Origin: Litchfieldia alkalitelluris
GTDB taxonomy: Bacteria; Bacillota; Bacilli; Bacillales; Bacillaceae_L
Length of the DNA: 64,000 nucleotides
Assembly (NCBI RefSeq): GCF_002019645.1
Contig: NZ_KV917374.1
Span: 1,686,696 to 1,750,695 of the forward strand
Reading direction: 5' to 3'
Shown here: positions 44,657 through 62,120 of the stretch, in pieces
Numbering within the stretch: the stretch's first letter is position 1
Layout of the letters: every line of letters begins with the position of its first letter
Notes under the pieces: model-generated
The model's input: only the letters and a program-made list of their open reading frames with translations
Told to the model about the DNA's origin: nothing
The model's database searches: none
Translations under genes and position numbers: made by a program

Positions 44657-44694
44657 TATCTTAATACCAATAAGGGCGGAGCATTAGAGAGGTT

Positions 44695-44915
44695 TCACCG
44701 ACAAAACGACCAGAGCAAGCGGTCAAAATGTCGTGGAGGAAAGGTGTCACCGACAAAACGACCAGAGCAAGTGGTCAAAATGTCGTTGAGTAGAGGTCTC
44801 ACCGACAACACCCCACATCAAGCCTTCCGAACTGTCGTTGATGCAAAGTCTCAACGATAAATCTACCAAAAAAAACAAGTTGTCCATACGTCCTTGAGTC
44901 GAGGTCTTTAGGACA
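44695..44915 (+). repeat. Tandem hairpin array with CGACA...TGTCG units
   Basis: Units beginning TCACCGACA start at 44695, 44747, 44799 and 44851 (52 bp each), with a degenerate fifth at 44907. The first two are nearly identical and later ones drift. Each unit folds as CGACA...GACC...GGTC...TGTCG, a two-part stem. Confidence 0.75.
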
Positions 44916-51814: not shown

Positions 51815-52115
51815 AGGCGAAAACAAGTAGGAAGTAAATATTTGGCCTCTATGATTCAGTTGCTCAATAGAAAATAAGGAGAAAGTAAATCATAGGGCCT
51901 TTTTGATTTAGTTGCTGAAGCGAAAACAAGGGGAAAGTGAATCATAGGCTCTCTATGATTTACTTACCGAGGCGAAAACAAGGTGGAAGTAAATCATAGG
52001 GCCTTTATGATTTAGTTGCTGAAGAGGAAACAAGGAGAAAGTGAATCATAGGGCCTCTATGATTTAGTTGCCGAGGCGAAAACAAGGAGAAAGTAAGTCA
52101 TAGGGTCTATTTTCA
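51815..52115 (+). repeat. Tandem hairpin array inside the operon
   Basis: Six units of about 52 bp with AGGCGAAAACAAGGnGAAAG followed by a hairpin (AATCATAG-GGCCT-CTATGATT in the best copies). Successive anchors fall near 51817, 51868, 51920, 51972, 52024 and 52076. The outer units are degenerate. No gene is present in this 360-bp gap. Confidence 0.8.
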
Positions 52116-55484: not shown

Positions 55485-55518
55485 TATGTAACTTAGGGTT
55501 TAGCTGGAGGTGAGTTCG

Positions 55519-56196
55519 ATGAATTCGTTTATTGATGTAAAAGGGGTTCAGCGAGATTTTGGTCAGGGAAATCAAACAATCTCTGTTCTTAAGGGGATAA
55601 ATCTTTCGATTGATCAGCATCAAATGATTGCCTTAAAAGGAAGGTCTGGCTCTGGAAAAACCACACTTTTGAATTTAATAGGGGGCTTGGATCAACCAAC
55701 AAAGGGAGAAATCTATGTTGATGGTCAACAAATTAATACCTTAAGTGATCGGGAATGTTCCGAATATAGAAGAACGAATATCGGCTTTATTTTTCAATCA
55801 CATGGACTGGTTCCTCTAATGACAGTTGAGGAGAATGTGGAATTTAGTCTTCGAGTAGCTGAAATACCTAGAGAAGAATGGAAGACTCGTGTGGAAGAAG
55901 CGTTAGAGCTTGTTGGATTAACGAAAAGAATGAAGCATCTGCCACTAGAAATATCCGGTGGTGAACAACAAAGGGTAGCGATTGCACGTGCAATCGCAGT
56001 CTGTCCCGTTCTCATTTTAGCCGATGAACCTACTGCTGAATTAGACAGTAAACGGTCATATCAATTAATTAATGTATTACAAGAGCTTGTACAGGAGAAA
56101 AAAACGACGATTATCATGACCACCCACGATCCAGCGATTCTAGAAATGCTTGACCATGTCTATCAATTGGAGGATGGAAGAATTGAAGCTGTATAG
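55519..56196 (+). CDS. MacB-type ABC exporter ATPase 1
   Basis: A 225-residue ATPase of the LolD/MacB type: Walker A GRSGSGKTT, Q-loop FIFQSHGLVPLMTVEENVEF, signature ISGGEQQRVAIARAI, Walker B LILADEPTAELDSK and switch His in MTTHDP. ATG 55519 follows TGGAGGTGAG. It overlaps the next gene by 14 bp and should power the FtsX-like permease encoded at 57230, together with the second ATPase gene at 60041. The exported substrate is unknown. Confidence 0.92.
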   Translation: MNSFIDVKGVQRDFGQGNQTISVLKGINLSIDQHQMIALKGRSGSGKTTLLNLIGGLDQPTKGEIYVDGQQINTLSDRECSEYRRTNIGFIFQSHGLVPLMTVEENVEFSLRVAEIPREEWKTRVEEALELVGLTKRMKHLPLEISGGEQQRVAIARAIAVCPVLILADEPTAELDSKRSYQLINVLQELVQEKKTTIIMTTHDPAILEMLDHVYQLEDGRIEAV

Positions 56197-57214
56197 ACGA
56201 TATCGATTGGCAGTGTTGATGATTATTACATTTTTACTATTGTTTCCGTTATCAGCATGTTCACTTCTTCCTAAAGAAGAGCCTGTCCTTGCACCTCCGT
56301 TAGTAGAACCTGCAACAATCGATTATGATACGGTAACGATAAAAACGGGGGACATTGTAAAGCGAGTAAAAGGGATGGGTACGATTGTGCCGCTAGATCA
56401 TCAGCCATTGTCCTTTACACAATCAGGCGGAAGAATAAAGAAAATCCATGTAACAAAGGGAGATGCTGTGAAAAAGGGTCAGGTGTTGGCAGAAGTCGAT
56501 ACAGGGAATCTACAGTATCAACTCGAGTTAGCAAGGATTAACTTAAAAAAGGCGGATTTACGACTAAAACAGCTCCAATCACAACGCTCTGATACATATA
56601 CGATTGACATGGCGAAGTTAGATCAACAAGGCATTGAAATTCAAATCCGTCAGCTTGAGGGAGAACTAACTAACTCATCAATCGTCTCACCTCTTACAGG
56701 AATGGTTACGTTTGTAACAGAGTTAAAGATAGGCGATCTGATACAGGCATTTGAACCAGTTGTCCAGATTGCCGACACGTCTAAGCTGCAAGTCATTTAT
56801 ACGGCTACAGGAGCTGAAGAATTAACGGATATAAAAATTGGTATGAAAGCAGCGTTAAGTGTGGATGGTAAATCGTTAGAAGGAAAAATAACCCAAACCC
56901 CACGGGATGTCCCAAAAGAACTGTTGGAAAAAGATCCTGATCTTTATCAAAGAAGCATCTTTATCTCACTAAATGATATACCAAAGGAAGCAGAGGTAGG
57001 AAGCTCCATTGATCTTGAAATCATTACTGCGAAAAAAGAGAATGTATTAATTTTACCAAAAAGTGCGCTTCGAAGCTCAGGAGGACGTCAATATGTTCAT
57101 GTGTTTGTAGAAGAAGCAAAACGCGAGGTCGATATTGAGGTAGGAATTGTATCAGCTACAGAGGTAGAAGTGATAAGTGGCTTGGATGAAGGTGATACCG
57201 TTATTTTAAAATAA
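56183..57214 (+). CDS. HlyD/MacA-like membrane fusion lipoprotein
   Basis: A 343-residue adaptor protein. TTG 56183 (9 bp after GGAGG) gives an ideal lipoprotein signal: MKLYRRYRLAVLMI then LLLFPLSAC. The body shows an unknotted lipoyl/barrel-sandwich (GGRIKKIHVTKGDAVKKGQV, SPLTGMVTFVTELKIGDLI), a short coiled-coil hairpin (LELARINLKKADLRLKQLQS) and a beta-barrel region ending in GLDEGDTVILK. In Gram-positives such proteins assist MacB-like permeases. It overlaps the upstream ATPase gene and is followed 15 bp later by the permease gene. Confidence 0.88.
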   Translation: MKLYRRYRLAVLMIITFLLLFPLSACSLLPKEEPVLAPPLVEPATIDYDTVTIKTGDIVKRVKGMGTIVPLDHQPLSFTQSGGRIKKIHVTKGDAVKKGQVLAEVDTGNLQYQLELARINLKKADLRLKQLQSQRSDTYTIDMAKLDQQGIEIQIRQLEGELTNSSIVSPLTGMVTFVTELKIGDLIQAFEPVVQIADTSKLQVIYTATGAEELTDIKIGMKAALSVDGKSLEGKITQTPRDVPKELLEKDPDLYQRSIFISLNDIPKEAEVGSSIDLEIITAKKENVLILPKSALRSSGGRQYVHVFVEEAKREVDIEVGIVSATEVEVISGLDEGDTVILK

Positions 57215-57229
57215 AGGGAGGAGAGCTGC

Positions 57230-60040
57230 ATGACAATTATTAAAATTATCATCAGAAAAATGCTAAGTAATCGATGGCTAACTGGCAGCTTATTCCTCGG
57301 ATTACTGATCACGGTGTCACTAGTCTCGAGCATTCCGACTTATACCTCGAGTGTTTTACACAAGCTGTTAGTGAGTGAGCTTGAAGATTATCAAATCAAG
57401 CAAGGGCAGTTTCCTGGGGAGTTCTCATTTTTAACGAATTTTTCGGAGTCAACCGATGTCGATTCTCTTAAGAAAATAGGAGAAATCAATGATGGAATGA
57501 TTAGTGATGTGGGTTTGCCGGCTTTAGCAAAAACATTGATTTTAAGCACTCATCCATATGAAATTAAGTTAGGTGAAAACAGTGACCAACCATTTGGCCG
57601 AATGGTGAGTATGACTAACATTGAAAACCATATTACGATAACCGATGGTGAATTTCCACAATCCTCTAAGGATGACATCATTCAAGTGTTAGTACCTGAA
57701 AAGGCATTACAGAAGAGAGGAATCGTTTTAAACTCACAATTGACGTTAAAAGATGGCGAAGAAACGCTCACCATTCAGCCAGTAGGGACCTTTCGGGCGA
57801 AGGAAACAAATGACCCTTATTGGTCGATTCCACCGGAACGTTATACAGATGATTTTATTGTTGTGGAAGAACTGTTTCAGCAGTTGTTTTTAAAAGATGG
57901 GGTGTTAGCGTCTGCACGCTTTTATACAGCATTTGACTATCACTTGATCCAAGAAAAACAAAGTCAGAAGCTATTAAACTTAGAAAATCGTTTAAAGTCA
58001 GAAGTAAGTGAAGTGAATAAAGAACCGATCATCATCCAATTTCCAATTCATGATCTATTGGTTAGCTATTTAAGTAAAGGGAAGCAGTTAACCATCATGT
58101 TTTGGTCACTAAACATACCAGTGATCATCATGCTCGGTTTATATTTGTTCATGGTATCGCGCTTAATTGTTGAACGGCAGCTGACTGAAATTGCCGTTTT
58201 ATCAAGCAGAGGTGCTAAAAGATCACAAATCATGATGATTTATTTTATCGAAGTCAGCATTCTTGGGATGGTTGCGGTAGTAATTGGTCCCATGATTGGA
58301 TTCGCCTTTTGCAAATTCTTAGGTGCAACAAATGGTTTTCTTGAGTTTGTCCAGAGAGAACCACTTCAAGTTGCTGTGACGATGAAGTCTTATTTGTACG
58401 GAATATGCGCTATCCTTGTTTCAATGGTGATGGTGATGCTACCAGTCTATCAAGCTTCAAAAAAGAGTATTGTCCATCATAAGCAAACATTGACAAAGGC
58501 GATGGTTGCTCATGAATGGTATTCGCTACTTGTGGCGGTTCTCTTTTTAATTTTTTCAATATATGGTTTATTTGTATTTAAAAATAGACAGCCAGCTGCG
58601 CATGGAGAGGAGTTATTTGTTGATCCGATTCTCTTTTTCATTCCAGCGCTATTCATTATTGGTGTTGCGTTGCTATTCTTACAAATTTATCCTTTACTAT
58701 TAAAGACTTTGTATCGTATAGGAGAGAAGTATTGGAGCTTATCATTGTTTAGTACGTTTATACAGGTTAGTCGATCATCAAGGCAGTATCAGTTTCTGAT
58801 GCTTTTTCTAATGATGACGATTGGTATTGGAATCTTTAGTGCAAGCTCTGCACGTACATTGAATCTAAACCTTGAGCAGCAGATTCGCTATAAAAATGGA
58901 GCAGATCTTGTTTTAGACGTCAAATGGGAAAGTACTAGCATTCAGTCACTTCCTGTATCAGGATCCACGACTCCAGCTACCTCAGAAACCGAGGAAAATG
59001 CTGTGACCGAGAAAGACGTTGTGTATTCAGAACCACCATTTGATCCTTTTTTAAAACTAGAAGAAGTTGAACATGCTGCAAAAGTTTTACAAAAAGATGA
59101 TATAACGGTTGAAGCAAAAGGGAAATCTCTCTTTTCAATGAAGTTAATGGGAATTGAGCCAAATGAGTTTGGTCAAACGGCTTGGTTTAAATCATCTTTA
59201 CTTCCGTCTCATTGGTATGGCTATTTAAACTTGTTAGCAGCCGAACCCAGCTCAGTGTTAATCTCTAGTAAAATAGCAGATTCATTAGATGTAACAACCG
59301 GTGATTATTTAACGTTAAAAGATTCATCATCAAACTCAATGGAAGTAGTCATATATGAAATTATGGACTATTGGCCGACATTTAACCCCTCCCTTAAAAA
59401 TGAAGATGGAGGAGAAGCGGGACTGATTGTGGCGAACCTTCCATATGTACAAAACAGAATGTCACTTGAGCCTTATCAAGTATGGCTGAAGGTAAAAGAA
59501 GAGAAATCAAGAGCAACTTTGTACGAAAGTGTGAAAAAAGCAGAAATCCCAGTTATCAATATAAGTGATATCCATCCAAAGCTAGTAGAGTTGAAAAATA
59601 GCGCCTTTCTACTAGGGTTAAATGGTACCCTTTCACTAGGTTTCTTGATTTCGGTAGGGATTGCGTTCGTAGGTTTTTTACTTTATTGGATTTTAACAAT
59701 CCAAGCACGAACTCTTCAATATGGGATTTACCGTGCAATGGGTGTGCCATTAAGAAAATTAATAGCTATCTTAGTTTATGAGCAGTTGTTTACATCAGGG
59801 GTTGCAGCGGTTTTAGGCCTGATCATCGGAGGAATAACAAGTATCTTATATGTTCCCTTATTTCAAATTTCCTTTGATCCACAGCAAATGGTACCACCTT
59901 TTCAAGTAATCTTTGATCCAAGTGATGAACGGAAGATTTATGTATTTGTTACATTGATGTTGGTGATTGGCTTAACCATTTTTATTTTATTTTTAAAGAA
60001 GCTGAACATTCATCAAGCCGTAAAGTTAGGTGAGGATTAA
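57230..60040 (+). CDS. Large FtsX-family ABC permease
   Basis: A 936-residue permease with two FtsX-like modules. An N-terminal span (LTGSLFLGLLITVSLVSSI) leads to a large extracellular domain. Membrane segments cluster at about residues 287-410 and 425-530, a second extracellular domain follows at about 545-775, and the final spans lie at about 780-930. The segments ERQLTEIAVLSSRGAKRSQI and ARTLQYGIYRAMGVPLRKL are the two cytoplasmic coupling motifs of the FtsX fold. It forms the exporter with the flanking ATPases. Possible roles are peptide, lipid or antibiotic export or envelope stress response; the sequence does not decide. Confidence 0.9.
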   Translation: MTIIKIIIRKMLSNRWLTGSLFLGLLITVSLVSSIPTYTSSVLHKLLVSELEDYQIKQGQFPGEFSFLTNFSESTDVDSLKKIGEINDGMISDVGLPALAKTLILSTHPYEIKLGENSDQPFGRMVSMTNIENHITITDGEFPQSSKDDIIQVLVPEKALQKRGIVLNSQLTLKDGEETLTIQPVGTFRAKETNDPYWSIPPERYTDDFIVVEELFQQLFLKDGVLASARFYTAFDYHLIQEKQSQKLLNLENRLKSEVSEVNKEPIIIQFPIHDLLVSYLSKGKQLTIMFWSLNIPVIIMLGLYLFMVSRLIVERQLTEIAVLSSRGAKRSQIMMIYFIEVSILGMVAVVIGPMIGFAFCKFLGATNGFLEFVQREPLQVAVTMKSYLYGICAILVSMVMVMLPVYQASKKSIVHHKQTLTKAMVAHEWYSLLVAVLFLIFSIYGLFVFKNRQPAAHGEELFVDPILFFIPALFIIGVALLFLQIYPLLLKTLYRIGEKYWSLSLFSTFIQVSRSSRQYQFLMLFLMMTIGIGIFSASSARTLNLNLEQQIRYKNGADLVLDVKWESTSIQSLPVSGSTTPATSETEENAVTEKDVVYSEPPFDPFLKLEEVEHAAKVLQKDDITVEAKGKSLFSMKLMGIEPNEFGQTAWFKSSLLPSHWYGYLNLLAAEPSSVLISSKIADSLDVTTGDYLTLKDSSSNSMEVVIYEIMDYWPTFNPSLKNEDGGEAGLIVANLPYVQNRMSLEPYQVWLKVKEEKSRATLYESVKKAEIPVINISDIHPKLVELKNSAFLLGLNGTLSLGFLISVGIAFVGFLLYWILTIQARTLQYGIYRAMGVPLRKLIAILVYEQLFTSGVAAVLGLIIGGITSILYVPLFQISFDPQQMVPPFQVIFDPSDERKIYVFVTLMLVIGLTIFILFLKKLNIHQAVKLGED

Positions 60041-60925
60041 ATGATACTTTGTCAAAATCTATTAAAGATTTATAAGGTCGATGACGATCATGAAGTGATG
60101 GCATTACAAGGGCTTGATTTAGAGGTTGAACAAGGCGAATTCATGGGGATTATTGGAACCAGTGGGAGCGGGAAATCGACTTTATTAAACATTCTTGGGG
60201 GACTAGATCGTCCAACTGCAGGCACGTGCAGCATTGATGGGAAAGATTTAGTGAAGATGTCTGATAAAGAGCTTGTGAGATATAAACTAGAAACCGTAGG
60301 GTTTGTTTGGCAAAATAACGCAAGAAATCTTATTCCATATTTAACTGCGATGGAAAACGTCGAGCTTCCAATGCTTCTAAAAGGAAAACAAAGCCGTGAA
60401 CGAGCAAGGGAGCTTCTTGAACTAGTGGGAATGGGTCATCGATTAAATAGTAAGTTAAGCATGCTCTCTGGTGGTGAACAGCAACGAGTAGCGATTTCGA
60501 TTGCACTTGCTAATAGCCCTAGATTATTACTAGCAGATGAACCAACAGGAAGTGTGGATTCGAAAACAGCTGATGTCATTTTAGATGTGTTTCGTGAAAT
60601 CAACCGTAGCCTAAATGTTACCATTGTCATCGTGACTCATGATACTGAACTGATGAAAAAAATGGATCGAGTCGTCGCGATTCGCAATGGAAAAACATCA
60701 AGTGAAATCATAAGACGTACTTTTGATGAAATGGAAGGAATCGAGCAGCAGCAAGGAAACACACTAGAGGACACACATGTAGAGTTAGCTGTCATTGACA
60801 AAGCGGGTAGAATTCAAGTGCCTCGAGACTACCTAAACGCGATTGGTCTTGAAAAAGAGAAAGCGAATAAACTAGAGGTTAAATTAGAGAATGGGAAGAT
60901 TATTTTAGTGAATCCGAAACGGTAA
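60041..60925 (+). CDS. ABC exporter ATPase 2 with C-terminal AbrB-like domain
   Basis: A 294-residue protein. Residues 1-225 are a MacB/LolD-type ATPase: Walker A GTSGSGKST, Q-loop FVWQNNARNLIPYLTAMENV, signature LSGGEQQRVAISIAL, Walker B LLLADEPTGSVDSK and switch VTHD. Residues about 248-294 form a swapped-hairpin AbrB/SpoVT-like segment (VIDKAGRIQVPRDYLNAIGL then LEVKLENGKIILVNP). An AbrB DNA-binding-type fold on an exporter ATPase is unusual; it may serve dimerisation or tie transport to regulation. ATG 60041 directly follows the permease stop. Confidence 0.9.
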   Translation: MILCQNLLKIYKVDDDHEVMALQGLDLEVEQGEFMGIIGTSGSGKSTLLNILGGLDRPTAGTCSIDGKDLVKMSDKELVRYKLETVGFVWQNNARNLIPYLTAMENVELPMLLKGKQSRERARELLELVGMGHRLNSKLSMLSGGEQQRVAISIALANSPRLLLADEPTGSVDSKTADVILDVFREINRSLNVTIVIVTHDTELMKKMDRVVAIRNGKTSSEIIRRTFDEMEGIEQQQGNTLEDTHVELAVIDKAGRIQVPRDYLNAIGLEKEKANKLEVKLENGKIILVNPKR

Positions 60926-60992
60926 GGGCTATTGTCGTAAGTAATGTAATCAGGCACTGGCTTTGATTCCCTTATTAGGGCTTTTGGCGAGA

Positions 60993-61429
60993 GAAAGGGA
61001 ATCAAACAACGTCTTTCGTTCCCTTGCACCGGTGTTTGGCGGGAGAAAGGGAATCAAACAACGTCTTTCGTTCCCTTGCACCGGCTTTTGGCGAGAGAAA
61101 GGGAATGAAACAGCGCCTTTCGTTCCCTTGCACCGGCTTTTGGCAAGAGAAAGGGAATGAAACAGCGCCTTTCGTTCCCTTGCACCGGCTTTGGCAAGAG
61201 AAAGGGAATGAAACAGCGCCTTTCGTTCCCTTGCACCGGCTTTGGCAAGAGAAAGGGAATGAAACAGCGCCTTTCGTTCCCTTGCACCGGCGTTTGGCGA
61301 GAGAAAGGGAATCAGACACCGCCTTTCGTTCCCTTGCACCGGCTTTTGGCGAGAGAAAGGGAATCAAACAGCGTCTTTCGTTCCCTTCCGACGGCTTTTG
61401 GCAAGAGAAAGGGAATCAAACAGCGCCTA
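60993..61429. repeat. Nine-unit 52-bp hairpin array between convergent genes
   Basis: GAAAGGGAAT anchors occur at 60993, 61045, 61097, 61149, 61200, 61251, 61303, 61355 and 61407, spaced 52 bp (twice 51). Each unit holds AAGGGAA-T-GAAA pairing with TTTC-G-TTCCCTT, then GCACCGGCTTTTGGC. The ninth unit is cut off at the yesL-like stop codon. A weaker half-unit precedes the first. Long open frames across it are products of the repeat. Confidence 0.92.
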
Positions 61430-62032
61430 TAAATCTAATTTTACCGAGCTACTAATCTTTTCAAAAGCATGGTTACAGATTAAGTAGACTAAATACGCTC
61501 CTGAACTGAAGCTAACTAAAGTGGTGTAGGGAATCCATAAAAAGAGTACACCGATCCCTAAAATAACGAGTACACCAAGTAATGTATAAGGAAAAAATGT
61601 CATCGAATAGATGAATGAGTTCTTCATTACCTGAAAGGTTCGTAGCTCGTAATTCACCATAACGGGAAACAAAAAGATTGTCGTTGAAAGAAGTAGAAAG
61701 CAAGCAAGAAAAAACACAGGGAAAAATAATAGCTTATATGATTCTAAGCTCGAGATGATGGTATAATTCATGTATAGTATGAAAGCGAATACAAACCAAA
61801 ACATCCCAATGATAAAGCTTTGCTTAAAGTTGTCTTTGAATAAAGTAAAGAAAACCCTGAAAAGAGTGCTCTCATCTTTTTGTGTCCATTTTCGAACCAC
61901 ACCGAATAGTGCAGCTGTTGCTGGGAAGATCGTGATTAGTGGTAAACAACATAGAAACCATACGAGATTTAATAAGAAGACATTTGAAACAATTTCTAGA
62001 AATCGTACAAAACGACTGTTAAATAAGGTCAT
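61427..62032 (-). CDS. yesL: YesL-family (DUF624) membrane protein
   Basis: A 201-residue integral membrane protein with about five hydrophobic segments and the YesL landmarks: FLEIVSNVFLLNLVWFLCCL near the start, PLITIFPATAALFGVVRKW and TLFKDNFKQSF. The minus-strand ATG at 62032 has GGGAGA 7 bp upstream; a GTG 15 bp earlier lies on the ribosome-binding site. YesL proteins accompany rhamnogalacturonan and other glycan-use operons in Bacillus, usually beside LplABC/YesOPQ transporters; the molecular function is unknown. It is divergent from the GH42 gene. Confidence 0.88.
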   Translation of the reverse strand: MTLFNSRFVRFLEIVSNVFLLNLVWFLCCLPLITIFPATAALFGVVRKWTQKDESTLFRVFFTLFKDNFKQSFIIGMFWFVFAFILYMNYTIISSLESYKLLFFPVFFLACFLLLSTTIFLFPVMVNYELRTFQVMKNSFIYSMTFFPYTLLGVLVILGIGVLFLWIPYTTLVSFSSGAYLVYLICNHAFEKISSSVKLDL

Positions 62033-62120
62033 AATCGTATCTCCCACTATTTTTTAAATTTTCTATAAATCTATCATATTTGTTCTAAAATTAAAACGCA
62101 ATCCTAGGAGGCTAAATCAA

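What the first reader, a model, noticed from the sequence alone, without database searches (positions are those of the whole stretch)
60993..61429. Nine near-identical 52-bp hairpin units between convergent genes
The units are so alike that recent expansion or active homogenisation is likely. The array fills the whole gap between the exporter operon and the convergent yesL-like gene, and its last unit runs up to the yesL-like stop codon. It could act as a two-way transcription barrier, a supercoil sink or an mRNA 3' protector, since each hairpin is present on both strands.
Basis: partly seen in the sequence, partly recalled or inferred. Interest (0 to 1): 0.62.

Follow-up and report, generated by a model that had tools for sequence, protein, structure and literature searches.

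The report
Species-specific 52-bp satellite DNA in bacilli
The nine repeats are one of at least 40 scattered arrays of a repeat found in only this species; the surprise is that unrelated repeat arrays in related bacteria share almost the same 51-53-base unit length, about five turns of the DNA helix, so the length rather than the sequence seems to be kept.

Summary
In detail: 60979-61428 has 8.7 copies of a 52-bp unit with an inverted repeat, filling most of the gap between an ABC-exporter operon and a convergent DUF624 (yesL-like) gene and overlapping its TAG stop. It is not a local device. The same unit (F1) forms at least 40 arrays (2-26 copies, 310 units) in this 5.4-Mb genome and is absent from 395 other genomes of the order. 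Arms are conserved, loops vary, arrays are homogenised, edge units are more degenerate. About half the arrays are the core of a MITE-like element with fixed leader and tail; the window copy lacks these. Arrays lie in all gene orientations and the window array has no strict intrinsic terminator, so a two-way barrier is not the family's role. Main result: in sampled noncoding DNA of three genomes of the family, 18 of 24 tandem arrays have period 51-53 and 5 more are multiples, across about ten unrelated unit sequences. At one conserved gene gap a related genus carries an unrelated 52-bp array where this species has F1. I infer a DNA-level length constraint of about five helical turns; its agent is unknown. 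Closest known kinds: MITE-borne minisatellites (BrickBuilt) and MIRUs.

The parts
60979..61428 (+). F1 array: 8.7 tandem copies of a 52-bp unit, each with inverted arms AAAGGGAATSAAA / TTTCRTTCCCTT
   Evidence: TRF, profile hits and unit spacings, unit alignment
60957..60978 (+). degenerate leading half-unit (CTGGCTTTGATTCCCTTATTAG) that extends the array towards the exporter operon
   Evidence: sequence read directly; coordinates approximate
61427..61429 (-). TAG stop codon of the DUF624 gene, overlapping the truncated last unit
   Evidence: sequence and ORF list
55510..60925 (+). exporter operon: ABC ATPase, HlyD-like adaptor, FtsX-like permease, second ABC ATPase
   Evidence: Pfam
61427..62047 (-). 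DUF624 (yesL-like) gene, convergent with the operon
   Evidence: Pfam
51817..52105 (.). F2 array: unrelated 52-bp unit, 5.6 copies, arms TAAATCATAG / CTATGATTTA
   Evidence: TRF, fold
44687..44808 (.). F4 array: unrelated 52-bp unit, 2.3 copies, long arms CTCACCGACA..GACC / GGTC..TGTCGTTGAG
   Evidence: TRF, fold

Best explanation
The array is one copy of a species-specific dispersed minisatellite (F1). Steps: (1) shown: F1 is at many loci, tandem almost everywhere, and found only in this species among 396 genomes of its order. (2) Shown for about half the loci: the array is the core of a MITE-like composite element with fixed leader, tail and outer motif, so these copies probably spread as that element (inferred); the window copy and about nine others lack those ends and are remnants or the parental form (inferred). 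(3) Supported: arrays grow and are homogenised locally by slippage or unequal exchange; neighbours resemble each other, edges decay, higher-order repeats occur, and a 51-bp variant spread through about 24 units at one locus. (4) Shown in samples: unit length is held at 51-53 bp although unit sequences differ completely between families and genera. (5) Inferred: the length is kept because 52 bp is about five turns of B-DNA, so that arms and A/T tracts stay on one face of the helix for a nucleoid protein or for the repeat-making process; the ruler is not identified. Any effect on transcripts of the neighbouring genes is most likely incidental.
For: At least 40 arrays, all period 51-53; 238 pattern hits here and 0 in 395 other genomes. 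Leader at 22, tail at 21, outer motif near 29 of 40 arrays. Within-array identity 0.93 against 0.81 between arrays; lag and edge effects. 23 of 40 noncoding arrays in samples have period 51-53, 18 of 24 in the family plus 5 multiples; units mostly unrelated. Convergent ypdA/asparaginase gap: F1 here, an unrelated 52-bp array in G010, no array in 15 others. A/T power at 10.4 bp 1.95 against 1.22 in noncoding controls, P about 0.014.
Against: The five-turn reading rests on a weak periodicity test and does not explain why four- and six-turn arrays are missing. Period counts come from samples, with the window itself chosen for its arrays (15 of 21 without it). Some unrelated-looking units may share remote ancestry (F3 and G010 unit, z 5.7). 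The mobility of the MITE-like element is inferred; no transposase was tied to it and no target duplication was tested. No transcript or strain data exist here.
Confidence: 0.62

Rival explanations
1. Two-way transcription terminator or mRNA 3' protector: the hairpins between convergent genes stop or stabilise transcripts from both sides and were amplified because more copies insulate better.
For: Convergent gaps are about twofold over-represented (10 of 40 against 16 of 124 long gaps). Neither flanking gene has another strict terminator at the window locus. In relatives the ypdA/asparaginase gap holds a terminator-like hairpin where this genome has an array. A loose rule flags hairpin plus T-rich sites in 64 of 80 array strands.
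Against: 30 of 40 arrays are not between convergent genes; most facing gene ends have their own terminator-like site first; no strict terminator in the window array; no covariation, persistent stem mismatch.
Confidence: 0.15
2. Common descent without constraint: all 52-bp arrays of the family derive from one old satellite whose sequence has diverged while its length drifted little; no ruler exists.
For: Two pairs of units within G005 are clearly related and F3 resembles the G010 unit. Length changes are rarer than substitutions in F1: arrays 75-81% alike still have 52 bp.
Against: Median pairwise similarity between units is at the shuffle level (z 0.1), and stem and loop sizes differ. A 1-bp length change can sweep an array (L044, period 51), so beyond-recognition divergence should have scattered the lengths. 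Similar periods occur in Cohnella and Lachnospiraceae samples.
Confidence: 0.15
3. REP-type element spread by the RAYT (Y1) transposase of this genome.
For: Palindromic, intergenic, high copy; the genome encodes a full-length Y1 transposase of RAYT type, 265 aa.
Against: That gene is flanked by 37-bp GAAGCACGAGAACCGTCCC repeats, not F1. The F1 consensus has no GTAG or CGTC tag. Free single F1 palindromes are nearly absent: one in 400 kb.
Confidence: 0.05

Closest known systems
BrickBuilt, a minisatellite inside a MITE of Porphyromonas gingivalis (PMC4596501)
   Same: Species-specific, intergenic, tandem core without spacers between a leader and a tail, many loci, variable copy number, no own transposase
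   Different: Unit is 23 nt there and 52 bp here; F1 has an inverted repeat in each unit and occurs also without leader and tail; terminal inverted repeats and target duplications were not tested here
MIRU minisatellites of Mycobacterium tuberculosis (46-101 bp repeats at 41 loci, PMC3914561)
   Same: About 40 dispersed intergenic tandem arrays of one repeat family with a unit of similar size
   Different: No sequence relation; unit length here is held to 51-53 bp; strain-to-strain copy number variation is known for MIRUs and untested here
REP/BIME elements with RAYT transposases (PMC3733652, PMC8266576)
   Same: Intergenic palindromes in high copy, some between convergent genes
   Different: REPs are 20-50 nt palindromes with a GTAG or CGTC tag and a cognate RAYT; F1 lacks the tag and is not beside the RAYT-type gene of its genome

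Membership tests
REP / RAYT-associated palindromes | GTAG or CGTC tetranucleotide beside the palindrome | tested here: not met
   No such tag in the consensus of 26 units from different arrays; defined in PMC3733652 and PMC8266576
REP / RAYT-associated palindromes | same palindrome flanks the RAYT gene of the genome | tested here: not met
   The 265-aa Y1 transposase gene (L267 4180-4977) is flanked by a 37-bp GAACCGTCCC repeat
MITE-borne minisatellite (BrickBuilt-like) | tandem core between conserved leader and tail at many loci | tested here: met
   Leader at 22 and tail at 21 of 40 arrays; not at the window locus
MITE-borne minisatellite (BrickBuilt-like) | terminal inverted repeats and target-site duplications | not tested
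   The outer motif recurs near 29 of 40 arrays, but element ends and empty sites were not resolved
Dispersed VNTR minisatellite (MIRU-like) | one repeat family in tandem arrays at many intergenic loci | tested here: met
   40 arrays, 310 units
Dispersed VNTR minisatellite (MIRU-like) | copy number differs between strains | not testable with these tools
   One genome per species is held
Intrinsic transcription terminator | GC-rich stem directly followed by a T run | tested here: not met
   Strict scan finds none in 60979-61428; a looser rule flags T-rich sites in most F1 array strands
Known structured RNA family (Rfam) | match to an Rfam model at gathering score | tested here: not met
   No hit in the window

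The most novel reading that the evidence does not exclude
Bacillaceae, and perhaps other Firmicutes, carry a class of isoperiodic noncoding satellites: unrelated, lineage-specific sequences, each amplified in tandem at 51-53 bp (about five helical turns), arising repeatedly at different and sometimes the same gene gaps because a cellular ruler (the wrap of a nucleoid protein, or the repeat-making machinery) accepts only that length.
Probability: 0.4. Interest if true: 0.78.

Novelty: new variant of a known kind. Interest (0 to 1): 0.56.

Why it matters
If a fixed period is kept while sequence turns over completely, bacteria have a satellite class defined by DNA geometry rather than by sequence. 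That would point to an unrecognised length ruler in repeat amplification or nucleoid packing, and it predicts a 51-53 bp peak in noncoding tandem repeats of Bacillaceae that can be checked on public genomes. It also warns genome readers that such arrays between convergent genes are not by themselves evidence of a local regulatory device.

Tried and rejected
RAYT/REP membership: rejected, the RAYT-type gene has another cognate repeat. Rfam: no hit. Plasmid or phage origin: no blastn match. Compensatory base changes as proof of an RNA hairpin: none beyond shuffles. Array as a coding repeat: several open frames cross it on both strands, but the two tested match nothing in Pfam and 52 is not a multiple of 3. 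Orthologues of the exporter or of this DUF624 gene for an empty-site comparison: no close one in the family, so the ypdA/asparaginase locus, another F1 locus, was used. A strong 10.4-bp A/T signal in a first set of 20 units shrank to P about 0.014 with unrelated units and a noncoding control, so it is called suggestive. Full-text searches for a 52-bp Bacillus repeat or a period peak found none; only CC-licensed papers are held. An E. coli stretch was fetched as a possible control and not used.

Full report
OBSERVATION. The array is real: 60979-61428, 8.7 copies of a 52-bp unit, 93% matches, the highest-scoring tandem repeat of the window. Spacings are 52,52,52,51,51,52,52,52. It occupies the gap between an ABC-exporter operon of at least four genes (last stop at 60925) and a convergent DUF624 gene whose TAG stop (61427-61429, - strand) overlaps the truncated last unit. 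The unit holds AAAGGGAATSAAA and TTTCRTTCCCTT as inverted arms around a 7-nt loop. It folds at about -15 kcal/mol on either strand, but shuffles of the same composition fold almost as well (z -1.1), while the length of the inverted repeat exceeds all of 100 shuffles.

ONE OF MANY. The window is C1:1686696-1750695 of a 5.43-Mb genome. I fetched 36 stretches around these: all hold tandem arrays with period 51-53, with 2 to 26 copies. A profile search of these stretches plus 400 kb of evenly spaced sequence gives 310 units in 40 arrays plus one solo unit. The pattern AAAGGGAATSAN{8,14}TTYRTTCCCTT hits 238 times here and in none of 395 other genomes of the order, including two congeners. Many of those are short-read assemblies, which can shorten arrays but should not erase 40 of them.

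ANATOMY. Across 310 units most arm positions are 95-100% conserved, while the loop and part of the spacer vary. There is no sign of compensatory change, and 18 of 26 representative units keep a mismatch inside the stem, so selection on an RNA hairpin is not shown; conservation as a DNA motif fits equally well. Units are 93% alike within arrays and 81% between arrays; 242 of 310 have their nearest relative in their own array. Neighbouring units are more alike than random pairs of the same array (0.936 against 0.928, 0 of 500 shuffles), and edge units are further from the array consensus than inner ones (0.927 against 0.964). One array (L044) has a 51-bp period through about 24 units, and several show higher-order periods of 103, 155 or 207. 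These are the marks of satellite-type turnover.

DISPERSAL. Flanks of most arrays carry other dispersed repeats. Reading them shows a composite element: a leader ending TTCGGTCTCGAATATC, the F1 array, a tail GGGACTCTCCGACCTAGG, and an outer motif TTTTCAGGGTAGACATCCATGCTAAT that also joins other repeat modules. The leader is present at 22, the tail at 21 and the outer motif within 250 bp at 29 of 40 arrays; 10 arrays, the window's among them, have none. The outer motif is also confined to this genome within the family (159 hits). The closest published parallel is BrickBuilt of Porphyromonas gingivalis, a 23-nt minisatellite between leader and tail of a MITE (PMC4596501).

CONTEXT AND FUNCTION. 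With ORFs of at least 110 codons, the arrays sit in 26 codirectional, 10 convergent and 4 divergent gaps; background gaps over 200 bp are 91, 16 and 17. Convergent gaps are thus about twofold over-represented but a minority. Of 46 gene 3' ends facing an array, 30 have a terminator-like site before it, the same fraction as control gene ends (92 of 139); the same loose rule also flags something in 64 of 80 array strands, so some terminator activity inside arrays is not excluded. The strict scan finds none in the window array. A dedicated two-way barrier is therefore not the family's function, though a local effect here remains possible.

THE PERIOD. Three unrelated arrays in one window share the period 52, so I looked for tandem arrays of any sequence in samples: 464 kb of this genome, 600 kb of G005 and 400 kb of G016 (same family, other genera), 360 kb of nine other genomes of the order, 169 kb of congeners, and 1.31 Mb around 80 GH42 genes, mostly Firmicutes. 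Of 40 noncoding arrays with periods 25-160, 23 have 51-53, three have 104 and two 153-154. In the three genomes of the family 18 of 24 have 51-53 and five more are multiples. If periods were uniform on a log scale the chance is about 1e-22, or 2e-13 if unrelated families count once. Among the others 5 of 16 fall at 51-53 (P about 1e-4). The window is a biased part of the sample; without its three arrays the family count is 15 of 21. Unit sequences are mostly unrelated (median pair z 0.1), and stem and loop sizes differ. Eleven of 20 units tested have an inverted repeat that at most 2 of 100 shuffles match; others have none beyond chance. So the hairpin is common, but the period is the shared trait.

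INDEPENDENT ORIGIN AT ONE SITE. The convergent pair ypdA/asparaginase is kept in all 17 genomes of the family. In 15 relatives the gap is 49-329 bp without an array, often with one terminator-like hairpin by eye; here it holds a 12-copy F1 array; in G010, another genus, it holds 4.9 copies of a 52-bp unit of different sequence. So this F1 array is a recent addition, and the same gap was filled twice with arrays of one period and two sequences.

WHY 52? It is five turns of B-DNA (established helical repeat, about 10.4-10.5 bp). A first look at 20 units gave strong A/T periodicity at 10.4 bp, but that set held related units and used plain shuffles. With 17 largely unrelated units and noncoding DNA of the same genomes as control, the power at 10.4 bp is 1.95 against 1.22, P about 0.014: suggestive only. 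Peaks at four or six turns are missing, so something with a specific size, not helical phase alone, would have to act. I could not identify it.

VERDICT. The finding as stated is a correct sighting with an over-local reading. The locus is an ordinary member of a species-specific, partly MITE-borne satellite. The fixed period across unrelated arrays is the part that deserves follow-up; I found no report of it in the papers available.

Noticed in passing
L050:2440-3740, L061:2450-3950, L092:13618-14248 and other sites of G000: Modular dispersed repeats of about 190-220 bp (several different bodies) are joined by one outer motif, TTTTCAGGGTAGACA..CTAATT..CACCATGG..TGAAAA, like cassettes with a shared joint; 159 motif hits, none in 16 other genomes of the family.
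   Followed up: partly
L062:3147-4638 and L047:1532-3014: A Mutator/IS256-family insertion sequence (99% identical copies) sits inside F1 arrays, apparently at the same base of the unit spacer (after CCAAAAGC), which suggests F1 units are a preferred target.
   Followed up: partly
L267:4180-5200 (G000) and L260:1200-2460 (G002): RAYT-type Y1 transposase genes each flanked by their own palindromic repeats: a 37-bp GAAGCACGAGAACCGTCCC unit here and a 77-bp array with GTGCTG/CAGCAC palindromes in the congener.
   Followed up: partly
L095:18435-19086, L095:3749-4118, L079:18031-18303, L076:15499-16187: Further unrelated satellites in the same genome: a CCGCCGCATTTT family with period 104 (2 x 52), a TTCGGACAGCTT family with periods 52 and 104, and a TATCGGTCTAAC family with a 20-bp subunit.
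   Followed up: no
L044:3001-4290: The second longest F1 array (25 copies) has a 51-bp unit throughout, so a 1-bp deletion has spread over the whole array.
   Followed up: partly
L224:4853-17660 (G051): Four short arrays of a 37-bp unit around AGCGTGTCAGACACCC within 13 kb of another genome of the order.
   Followed up: no
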